Part shown: piece by piece, positions 26,644 to 30,088 of the stretch
How the letters are laid out: each line of letters begins with the position of its first letter
Position numbering within the stretch: position 1 is the stretch's first letter
Source: Caldisphaera lagunensis DSM 15908
GTDB taxonomy: Archaea; Thermoproteota; Thermoprotei_A; Sulfolobales; Acidilobaceae
Assembly (NCBI RefSeq): GCF_000317795.1
Contig: NC_019791.1
Coordinates: 310,001 to 374,000 of the forward strand
Direction: 5' to 3'
Length of the DNA: 64,000 nucleotides
The notes under the pieces: generated by a model
Told to the model about the DNA's origin: nothing
Seen by the model: only the letters and a program-made list of their open reading frames with translations
Databases searched by the model: none
Translations under genes and position numbers: made by a program

Positions 26644-26743
26644 TGGTGGGCCCGAGGGGACTTGAACCCCCGACCTACGGGTCTGGAGCATCGACCCAGT
26701 ATTAAACTGGTCCGCCGCTCTAACCTAGCTGAGCTACGGGCCC
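26644..26743 (-). tRNA. tRNA-Trp (anticodon CCA) with 22-nt intron
   Basis: The acceptor stem is GGGCCCG paired with CGGGCCC, discriminator A, and CCA is encoded in the genome. The D arm is GCTC/GAGC and the T arm is GGGGG-TTCAAGT-CCCCT. After removal of a 22-nt intron the anticodon arm is GCGGG-CTCCAGA-CCCGT, giving anticodon CCA (Trp). The intron interrupts the stem between positions 30 and 31, not at the canonical 37/38. Without splicing the stem would have a mismatch and position 33 would not be U. Confidence 0.93.
26690..26711 (-). other. Non-canonical tRNA-Trp intron (position 30/31)
   Basis: On the minus strand, exon ends ...GCGG and intron starts ACCAG..., ending ...GTCGAT before exon GCTCC. 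A full bulge-helix-bulge can be drawn: outer helix GAG/CTC, 3-nt bulge ATG, central 4-bp helix CGGC/GTCG (one G-U), 3-nt bulge GGA, and inner intron helix CCAG/CTGG closing a 7-nt loop. Cleavage after the second nucleotide of each bulge gives exactly this intron. The splicing endonuclease of Crenarchaeota (heterotetrameric type) accepts such sites. Confidence 0.88.
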
Positions 26744-26802: not shown

Positions 26803-28725
26803 TTATATATTTTTTAAAATACTCTCTAATTTCTCTTTTATTATTTCAGAAACAATCTTTCCATCGATTTTGCCTCTTAGTTTATCCATAGCCCTTCCCA
26901 TTAAAATGCTCATAGCTTTTTCTTTTTTTGATACTATTATATCCTTATTAGATTCAATTATCTCGTCTATAATTTTTATAGCCTCCTCAACACTAATCTT
27001 TTTAATTCCCATTTCATTAACGATATCTTCAATAGTTTTATCTTGTTGCTTAACCGCTCTGTCAATTATATCTTCAATTCCCTCTTTTGCAATTTTTCCT
27101 TCAGCCAATAACCTTATAATACTTTCTATTTTATTTTCATCTAATAAATCAACATCGATACCTTTTGACTTAAGACCTTTAAGTATACTTACAAACAAAG
27201 AAGCTATAAATGTTGGCTGCACTTTATTCCCATATTTATTTATTAATTCTTCTATAAAACCTAAATTTATATCATTAATAACCTTTTCTGCTAATTCATT
27301 GCTAAAATTATATTTCTCCATAAACGTCTTTAATTTCTTTTCAACAGGTTCTGGCTTTAATTTTTCAGCTTCATTTATTATATAAGAATTTATATACAAT
27401 GGTTTTATATCAGTTTCAGGATACATTCTTTCTTTTCCAGGTCTAGGTCTTAAGTATTTAGTTGTACCATCTTCATTAGCTCCCCTTGTTTCTTCAGGTA
27501 CTCCATCAAATGCCTGCTTAATTCTTTCTAATATGACACTTATTGCCTTCTTGCTTTTTTCTTCTTCATCAGCAATTATTATAAACGCATCATCTTTGTT
27601 TGCATTGAGTATTTCATATATCTTTTCAACTTCCTCATTAGTTATTCCATAATTTGGTAATTCATCGCTATGGAAAAGACCCTCTATCCCTGCATAAAAC
27701 CTTGCATAATCTGCTAATTCTGTCCCAAACCTTCTATTGGGAGTCAATTGAAATCCTATCAAACCTTTCATGTTTTTCAGCTTAATTCCAAATACTTTAC
27801 CTCCTGCATTTAATTTATTCTTTATTATTTTACTTTTTGTATTAGAAAATATTTCTGTTAAGTCCACAATGTTTACATTATTAAAATCTTCTTTATTTAA
27901 GTTCCTTTTAATTAATTCATCCTTCAAATTTAGTAGATTTAGTTGGCGTAAGGCCTCATACTTAATAATTTTTTCTATTAAATCTAATTTTTGAACTCCC
28001 TTTATCTCTGTTTTTGCTCCACCTTTAATACTTACATTTAAGTCTTGTCTAATAGTTCCTAGACCCCTTTTCACCTTACCAGTTAATCTTAAAAGCCTTC
28101 CGATAGCCAATGCAACCTCTCTAGCCTCTTGAGGATCATGTATATCAGGAGAAGTTGATATTTCTATTAATGGTATACCTAACCTATCTAATCTATACGT
28201 TATTTCCTTACCTGATTCAGATATTTTTCTTGCCGCATCCTCTTCAACAGCTATAGTTTCAATCCCATATTCTTTGCCATGAATCCCAATAGATCCATTC
28301 ATTGCAACAATTGCAGTTCTTTGAAATCCTGATGTATTACTCCCATCAATAACAATTTTTCTCATAGTATGTACTTCTCCAACTATATCAGAGTTTAATG
28401 CCAAAGCTAAAGAAGTAGCAATTATTACTGCTTCTGTATTAATTTCATGTGGTGGTTCTTCATCTGTCTCAACTAAACAATAATGATTATGAGGTGCCTC
28501 ATATTTATAAATTCTTCCCTTTCTCCATTCAAATAAAGCAGCTATATCAACTTCTCCTGTTTCACTTCTTGTGGGCCTCAATTTTCTTTTAAATTCATCT
28601 CCAGTTTCATCAATTAAATTTGTTGGACAATTACAAAAGAGCTTTTTTTCTGTGTTTAACTGCTGATGAATTTCTAAGCCAACCTTAAGTCCAATTTTCT
28701 CATAGTCTATATCAAGTTCATCCAT
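26803..28725 (-). CDS. gatE: Glu-tRNA(Gln) amidotransferase subunit E
   Basis: This 640-aa archaeal-only GatB relative activates Glu-tRNA-Gln, which then receives ammonia from GatD to make Gln-tRNA-Gln. The N-terminal motif is KVGLEIHQQLNTEKKLFCNCP. HNHYCLVETDEEPPHEIN, EEDAARKISE and GTIRQDLNVSI are characteristic. The middle third is the AspRS-like insertion found only in GatE, and the C-terminus is the YqeY-like tail (AMSILMGRAMDKLRGKIDG). ATG 28725 has AAGGTGG upstream and overlaps the gatD stop by 8 nt. Its presence implies no direct GlnRS route for Gln-tRNA-Gln. Confidence 0.96.
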   Translation of the reverse strand: MDELDIDYEKIGLKVGLEIHQQLNTEKKLFCNCPTNLIDETGDEFKRKLRPTRSETGEVDIAALFEWRKGRIYKYEAPHNHYCLVETDEEPPHEINTEAVIIATSLALALNSDIVGEVHTMRKIVIDGSNTSGFQRTAIVAMNGSIGIHGKEYGIETIAVEEDAARKISESGKEITYRLDRLGIPLIEISTSPDIHDPQEAREVALAIGRLLRLTGKVKRGLGTIRQDLNVSIKGGAKTEIKGVQKLDLIEKIIKYEALRQLNLLNLKDELIKRNLNKEDFNNVNIVDLTEIFSNTKSKIIKNKLNAGGKVFGIKLKNMKGLIGFQLTPNRRFGTELADYARFYAGIEGLFHSDELPNYGITNEEVEKIYEILNANKDDAFIIIADEEEKSKKAISVILERIKQAFDGVPEETRGANEDGTTKYLRPRPGKERMYPETDIKPLYINSYIINEAEKLKPEPVEKKLKTFMEKYNFSNELAEKVINDINLGFIEELINKYGNKVQPTFIASLFVSILKGLKSKGIDVDLLDENKIESIIRLLAEGKIAKEGIEDIIDRAVKQQDKTIEDIVNEMGIKKISVEEAIKIIDEIIESNKDIIVSKKEKAMSILMGRAMDKLRGKIDGKIVSEIIKEKLESILKNI

Positions 28726-30088
28726 GATACCACCTTGGATATAATCTTAATTCATGCCTTAGGTTAATTTCGCCTGCTAAGTTAGTTAACATGTAATTTT
28801 TAATTTCATTCATGTTTCTTGTTCTAGATAAAACCCATGAAAGCTTTACATATGCCGTTTCAGGTAGCATATCTTCTCCTGGAATAACTCCTGCTTGAAG
28901 CATTTTTCTTCCAGTACTATATACGTTTAAATTGACCCTACCAAACAACGTTTGACTAGTTATAACAACTGGTATTTCTGATTCATAAGCTCTCTCCAAC
29001 GAATCAATAAGTCTATTAGATATATGACCAAAACCAGTCCCCTCTATAACGATCCCATGATACTTATTATCGACTAAAAAATCTATTATATCATTGCTCA
29101 TACCTGGATAGTATTTTATCAATGCTACTCTATCGTCAAATCCGAATTCTGGGTTAATATCTTTTTTTTCTTTATATGATTTATTTATAATTTCTAATTT
29201 CCCTTCAAATGGATAAATTTTAGCTAATGGAATATCATTTATCGATTGAAATGCGTCTCTCCTACTTGTATGCATTTTCCTAACTTTCGTTGCTCTATGA
29301 GCCAATGCATAAGAGTCTGACGTTTCACCGTGCATTACGACGCAAACTTCACCGAAAGGGGCTTTAGATGCCACAATTGCTGATGATATAATATTGAATG
29401 CAGAGTCGCTGCTAGGTCTATCACTACTTCTTTGGGAACCTGTAAATACAATGGGACCTTTCAATCCTTTATTAAAAACGAAGGCAACAGCTGAAGCGGT
29501 GTATGCCATGGTATCAGTTCCATGAGCTATTATCAAACCATCATAATCATTAAATTTTTTAAAAATATTATATGTTATTAAATCCCAATATTTAGGGTTC
29601 ATATCTTCGCTAAATATTGATAATATTTCTTCTGCCTCAATATTGGTATAATTTAATACTTCTGGTACCGCAGCTACCAATTCATTAGGGTCCAAATATG
29701 GTTTTACAGCTCCTGTTTCATAATCCACCCTACTAGCTATCGTCCCTCCAGTTCCTAAAACCAAAATCCTTTTATTTTCAGGAGGTGTTATTTCTTTTTC
29801 AACTAGTTTAACTGGTTCACCAGCATGAGTCGTTAATTGGCCTTTTTTTAATAATTGTATTTCGCTTTTTTCATTAATTTTTACTCCAATGTTATAACCA
29901 TTATCTAACTTAAGAACTATTATATCTTCTTTGGAAAATTCATTTTTTGGCATTAGAGTTCCATTAAATTGTTTATTTCCATTTTTTATAGATATATAAT
30001 CTCCAGGAGCCGCATTTATTTCCTTGAGTTTATCAGCTATCATTCCATAATAACCAAAGTAAAACTCGTTTATTTTCAATTCAAGCAC
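28718..30088 (-). CDS. gatD: Glu-tRNA(Gln) amidotransferase subunit D (asparaginase-like)
   Basis: This 456-aa subunit hydrolyses glutamine and channels ammonia to GatE. It has a GatD-specific N-terminal beta domain (about 1-90) followed by an L-asparaginase-type domain with the nucleophile T116 in GTGGTIASR and the second Thr in HGTDTMAYTASA, plus FTGSQRSSDRPSSD. GTG 30088 begins the longest frame, but it overlaps a GGTG that may serve TTG 30079. It lies between rps30e and gatE on the same strand, with 17 nt between rps30e and the GTG. Confidence 0.95.
   Translation of the reverse strand: MLELKINEFYFGYYGMIADKLKEINAAPGDYISIKNGNKQFNGTLMPKNEFSKEDIIVLKLDNGYNIGVKINEKSEIQLLKKGQLTTHAGEPVKLVEKEITPPENKRILVLGTGGTIASRVDYETGAVKPYLDPNELVAAVPEVLNYTNIEAEEILSIFSEDMNPKYWDLITYNIFKKFNDYDGLIIAHGTDTMAYTASAVAFVFNKGLKGPIVFTGSQRSSDRPSSDSAFNIISSAIVASKAPFGEVCVVMHGETSDSYALAHRATKVRKMHTSRRDAFQSINDIPLAKIYPFEGKLEIINKSYKEKKDINPEFGFDDRVALIKYYPGMSNDIIDFLVDNKYHGIVIEGTGFGHISNRLIDSLERAYESEIPVVITSQTLFGRVNLNVYSTGRKMLQAGVIPGEDMLPETAYVKLSWVLSRTRNMNEIKNYMLTNLAGEINLRHELRLYPRWYHG

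What the first reader, a model, noticed from the sequence alone, without database searches (positions are those of the whole stretch)
26644..26743. tRNA-Trp with a 22-nt intron at position 30/31 and a complete bulge-helix-bulge
Seen: a 22-nt insertion interrupts the anticodon stem, and exact outer, central and inner helices with two 3-nt bulges can be drawn, with the central helix CGGC/GTCG crossing both splice sites. Removal restores stem GCGGG/CCCGT, U33 and anticodon CCA. Known: archaeal tRNA-Trp genes often carry a canonical 37/38 intron, in Euryarchaeota with a C/D guide; introns at other sites occur in some Crenarchaeota. The short stem-site intron and the absence of any guide RNA in it are notable.
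Basis: partly seen in the sequence, partly recalled or inferred. Interest (0 to 1): 0.7.

Follow-up and report, generated by a model that had tools for sequence, protein, structure and literature searches.

The report
Known-type stem intron in archaeal tRNA-Trp
The tryptophan tRNA gene of this archaeon really carries a 22-base intron inside its anticodon stem, but it is an ordinary member of a family-wide intron whose splicing at the same site was already proved by cDNA sequencing in the related Aeropyrum pernix.

Summary
On the minus strand, 26743-26644 is the genome's only tRNA-Trp(CCA). It is interrupted between positions 30 and 31 by ACCAGTTTAATACTGGGTCGAT (26711-26690), and a full 3+4+4 bp bulge-helix-bulge can be drawn. 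An enumeration of all intron positions and lengths chose the same site unprompted. Intronless relatives carry exactly the predicted spliced anticodon arm GCGGGCTCCAGACCCGT, and sixteen genomes of the family, this one included, carry an 18-37 nt intron at precisely this site, most with divergent sequence but the same structure. One of these (G027) has the genome size of Aeropyrum pernix K1, where splicing of the tRNA-Trp intron after nucleotide 31 was confirmed by cDNA (PMC4307357); that is the homologous site. The genome encodes both EndA subunit types and RtcB. Site 30/31 is a listed non-canonical site (PMC4090602). Lack of a C/D guide is expected in a 22-nt intron. A GatE tree suggests an ancestral intron lost cleanly three times, the one mildly interesting point. 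Verdict: real and correctly read, but a known kind of intron in a known place. Interest is low.

The parts
26712..26743 (-). 5' exon of tRNA-Trp(CCA), Sprinzl 1-30 (32 nt)
   Evidence: identical arm in intronless relatives
26690..26711 (-). 22-nt intron ACCAGTTTAATACTGGGTCGAT at 30/31
26644..26689 (-). 3' exon, Sprinzl 31-73 plus encoded CCA; anticodon CCA at 26686-26684
26714..26717 (-). central helix of the BHB, 5' strand CGGC (Sprinzl 25-28)
26692..26695 (-). central helix of the BHB, 3' strand GUCG (in the intron)
   Evidence: GCCG or GCUG in most relatives, still pairing
26711..26713 (-). 5' three-base bulge GG|A with the 5' splice site
26689..26691 (-). 3' three-base bulge AU|G with the 3' splice site
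26696..26710 (-). inner (intron) hairpin CCAGUUUAAUACUGG
26718..26720 (-). outer helix, 5' strand GAG (shared with the D stem)
26686..26688 (-). outer helix, 3' strand CUC (Sprinzl 32-34)

Best explanation
This is the sole tRNA-Trp(CCA) gene of an Acidilobaceae-type crenarchaeon. It is transcribed as one piece. The 22-nt intron at 30/31 folds with the flanking exons into a bulge-helix-bulge. A heteromeric (alpha-beta)2 EndA cuts in both three-base bulges, RtcB joins the exons, and the intron is discarded. The intron has no guide RNA and no known other role. Shown: sequence, boundaries against intronless relatives, conservation of site and structure, presence of the enzymes' genes, and (published) splicing of the A. 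pernix homologue. Inferred: that cleavage and ligation happen in this species, and by these enzymes.
For: Only one CCA tRNA among 46 tRNAs in a 99.7% complete genome, so the gene must work. Unbiased enumeration gives 30/31, 22 nt. Intronless tRNA-Trp in G046, G037, G054, G165, G147, G099, G158 equals the spliced anticodon arm. Sixteen genomes carry an intron at the same site, 18-37 nt; central helix complete in all but one (G138); inner helix pairs change in step (C-G/T-A, A-T/C-G, C-G/G-C). A. pernix cDNA confirms the site: the G027 gene has its intron after nucleotide 31 by my count (L168), as the paper reports. EndA alpha (5.9e-47 to 3p1z_B) and beta (6.2e-26 to 3p1z_A) subunits, both matching the two chains of one solved structure; RtcB 1.9e-178.
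Against: No RNA data for this organism here. Thermodynamic folding prefers a slightly shifted pairing (outer helix GAGCG/UGCUC) over the exact BHB by 3.4 kcal/mol at 70 C, though the same kind of gap is seen in three homologues.
Confidence: 0.97

Rival explanations
1. The gene is a degenerate tRNA with a neutral or disruptive insertion; translation uses another tRNA-Trp.
For: The gene scores lower than most tRNAs in the genome as it stands (51.7 bits).
Against: No other CCA anticodon among 46 tRNAs; all exon features intact; same-site introns with the same structure in fifteen other genomes.
Confidence: 0.01
2. The intron lies elsewhere (for example canonical 37/38) or the tRNA has another identity, as ARAGORN's gttt anticodon would imply.
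For: ARAGORN output.
Against: The enumerator over all positions ranks 30/31 with CCA best; intronless relatives fix the boundaries; ARAGORN's reading leaves a four-base anticodon and no identity.
Confidence: 0.01
3. The intron has an extra role, such as a folding checkpoint (the BHB uses D-stem and anticodon-loop bases, so splicing must precede cloverleaf folding) or protection of the gene against integrating elements, and is kept for that reason.
For: Site kept across at least six genera while intron sequence diverges; outer and central helices use Sprinzl 22-28 and 32-34, so the precursor structure excludes the D stem.
Against: Apparently clean loss in three genera; conserved site with free sequence is what ordinary BHB introns show.
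Confidence: 0.05

Closest known systems
tRNA-Trp(CCA) intron of Aeropyrum pernix K1 (PMC4307357)
   Different: Intron 37 nt in the genome taken as A. pernix (G027), 22 nt here; sequence diverged; splicing shown there by cDNA, not here.
Non-canonical archaeal BHB tRNA introns in general (sites 20/21, 22/23, 25/26, 29/30, 30/31, 45/46 ...; PMC4090602)
   Same: Site 30/31 is on the published list; such introns are found mostly in Crenarchaeota, which have the alpha2-beta2 endonuclease.
   Different: Nothing essential.
Split tRNA-Lys(CUU) of Staphylothermus and Nanoarchaeum, joined at 30/31 (PMC3218864)
   Same: Same junction site and hBHBh' structure.
   Different: Here both exons lie in one gene, 22 nt apart (cis).
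Euryarchaeal tRNA-Trp intron with intron-encoded C/D guide
   Same: Same tRNA.
   Different: That one is at 37/38, long, and carries a C/D RNA (own knowledge); this one is 22 nt at 30/31.
Sulfolobaceae-type tRNA-Trp intron (family f11, L165-L167)
   Same: Same tRNA, same order.
   Different: Insertion follows CTCCAG, the canonical 37/38 site, and is much longer.

Membership tests
Archaeal BHB tRNA intron at a non-canonical site | Removal restores a normal tRNA with a functional anticodon | tested here: met
   intronless relatives have the identical spliced arm
Archaeal BHB tRNA intron at a non-canonical site | Bulge-helix-bulge (3-nt bulge, 4-bp helix, 3-nt bulge) at the junctions | tested here: met
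   Exact pairing by sequence; shuffle fraction 0.00015; conserved in relatives
Archaeal BHB tRNA intron at a non-canonical site | BHB is the energetically favoured fold in isolation | tested here: inconclusive
   Not the minimum energy fold here or in three homologues
Archaeal BHB tRNA intron at a non-canonical site | Heteromeric EndA and RtcB ligase encoded | tested here: met
Archaeal BHB tRNA intron at a non-canonical site | Precise splicing in vivo | not testable with these tools
   Shown for the A. pernix homologue only
tRNA-Trp intron with C/D guide RNA (Euryarchaeota) | Intron long enough to hold boxes C and D and guide regions, at 37/38 | tested here: not met
   22 nt at 30/31; position 39 is C
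Split (trans-spliced) tRNA | Halves in separate loci | tested here: not met
   Both exons within 100 nt, same strand

The most novel reading that the evidence does not exclude
The 30/31 intron was present in the common ancestor of the family and has been lost exactly, without scar, at least three times (genera g5, g8, g62), which would make this tRNA a clean natural series for studying how archaeal tRNA introns are lost, or hint that it is kept as a folding checkpoint in the other genera.
Probability: 0.35. Interest if true: 0.3.

Novelty: already known. Interest (0 to 1): 0.13.

Why it matters
It adds species to a known intron and gives a worked case in which tRNA software misreads a functional tRNA-Trp because the intron sits in the stem. 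The distribution across the family (site fixed, sequence free, precise losses) is useful material for the intron gain/loss debate, but it does not change current understanding.

Tried and rejected
Trans-acting C/D guide for C34 of tRNA-Trp: a pattern for a guide ending at box D (TCTGGAGNNCTGA, up to 1 mismatch) gave five one-mismatch hits, none exact, against five for the reversed control, so nothing above chance. tRNA-Trp of the genera g6 and g9 and of the outgroup families (other than f11) was not recovered with sequence patterns; whether they carry introns at 30/31, 37/38 or both is unresolved. Canonical intron, other identity, pseudogene and split gene were considered and rejected. Minimum-energy folding was tried as a proof of the BHB and is not decisive.

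Full report
What is there. The minus strand of 26743-26644 reads GGGCCCGTAGCTCAGCTAGGTTAGAGCGGCGG | ACCAGTTTAATACTGGGTCGAT | GCTCCAGACCCGTAGGTCGGGGGTTCAAGTCCCCTCGGGCCCACCA. Rfam's tRNA model matches it with 51.7 bits and places an insertion in the anticodon arm. ARAGORN finds the gene but misreads it as 'tRNA-???' with anticodon gttt. I fetched all 46 tRNA genes of the genome and let a script try every intron position and length against cloverleaf and BHB criteria. For this gene it chose 30/31, 22 nt, anticodon CCA, and no other gene in the set has a CCA anticodon.

Is it more than chance. In the intron as found, all four central pairs (CGGC/GUCG), both three-base bulges and a five-pair inner helix are in register. 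Of 20,000 shuffles of the intron, a fraction of 0.00015 did as well. The outer helix is 3 bp (GAG/CUC). The strongest evidence is comparative. Genus g5 (G046, G037, G054, G165), g8 (G099, G158) and g62 (G147) have an uninterrupted tRNA-Trp whose anticodon arm GCGGGCTCCAGACCCGT equals the predicted spliced product. Sixteen genomes of genera g1, g2, g3, g4, g7 and g65, this genome included, have an insertion of 18-37 nt at exactly this point. Its sequence has diverged (for example ACCCCACAGGGGGCCGAG, ACCACGCCGGGGCGTGGGCTGTG, TCGAGGCCTTTCATGGCCGAGGTCGAG), yet the intron side of the central helix always reads GTCG, GCCG or GCTG (all pairing with CGGC), except ACCG in G138. The inner pairs also change in step.

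How it works. By homology and anatomy: the precursor forms a BHB, EndA cuts in the bulges after the second base of each, and RtcB joins the exons. The genome has two PF01974 proteins. One (181 aa) matches chain B of 3p1z at 5.9e-47 and keeps the histidine that reads alanine in the otherwise matching chain of 3ajv; the other (179 aa) matches chain A at 6.2e-26. That is the two-subunit kind of enzyme found in Crenarchaeota, the group rich in non-canonical introns (PMC4090602). RtcB is present. Because the outer and central helices use Sprinzl 22-28 and 32-34, the BHB and the D stem cannot coexist, so splicing should precede final folding (inference). Energy folding alone puts the exact BHB 3.4 kcal/mol (70 C) or 6.5 (37 C) above the minimum, with gaps of similar or larger size in three homologues, so I do not use folding energy as proof.

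What is known. PMC4307357 reports that A. [quoted passage not shown] G027, whose single contig of 1,669,696 bases agrees with A. pernix K1 (from memory), has its intron after nucleotide 31 (L168), which is Sprinzl 30/31. The same paper lists the other A. pernix non-canonical introns: Thr(UGU), Pro(CGG) and two Lys. This genome has exactly that set: Thr-TGT 22/23, Pro-CGG 32/33, Lys-TTT and Lys-CTT 45/46. PMC4090602 lists 30/31 among known sites, and PMC3218864 describes split tRNA-Lys joined there. So this is a known intron in a further species. A search of the held library for Caldisphaera lagunensis with tRNA and intron gave only one paper, on a protein-gene intron.

The guide RNA. A C/D guide is a feature of the long euryarchaeal tRNA-Trp intron. 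A 22-nt intron cannot hold one, and PMC3218864 gives a median archaeal tRNA intron of 15 nt. A search for a separate C34 guide found nothing above its control. This is no anomaly.

Evolution. A GatE tree (28 rows) places the three intronless genera in three separate places among intron carriers, with three changes forced by well supported branches. Together with the shared A. pernix set, an ancestral intron with repeated exact loss is the simplest reading, though this is one gene tree and some genera could not be scored. Of the gene's neighbours, GatE was found beside tRNA-Trp in other members of the genus but in no other genus; the NUDIX protein likewise, apart from one weak partial match in g3.

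Verdict. Observation confirmed, interpretation correct, novelty slight.

Noticed in passing
L032, L040, L024, L028 (own genome): Four other non-canonical tRNA introns in this genome: Thr-TGT 22/23 (20 nt), Pro-CGG 32/33 (17 nt), Lys-TTT and Lys-CTT 45/46 (35 nt each); with tRNA-Trp they are the same set reported for A. pernix.
   Followed up: partly
L017, L022, L030, L037, L039, L044, L045, L046 (own genome): Eight tRNAs with introns at or near the canonical 37/38 site (Met, Thr-CGT, Tyr, Pro-GGG, Cys, Asp, Gln-CTG, Gln-TTG); for Tyr and Cys the simple BHB register was poor and the exact boundaries were not resolved.
   Followed up: partly
L079, L080, L082, L093, L100, L101: tRNA-Trp without intron in genera g5, g8 and g62, scattered among intron carriers on a GatE tree: apparent repeated exact intron loss.
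   Followed up: partly
G105 (g9), G062 and G153 (g6), G161 (g3): tRNA-Trp not found by 3'-exon patterns in these nearly complete genomes of the same family; possibly additional introns.
   Followed up: no
window 26644-26743: ARAGORN labels this gene tRNA-??? (gttt): stem introns defeat it, so automatic annotation of such genomes may lack tRNA-Trp.
   Followed up: yes
window 26803-30088: Two ORFs next to the tRNA on the same strand read as GatE and GatD (archaeal Glu-tRNA amidotransferase), judged from the sequence only.
   Followed up: no
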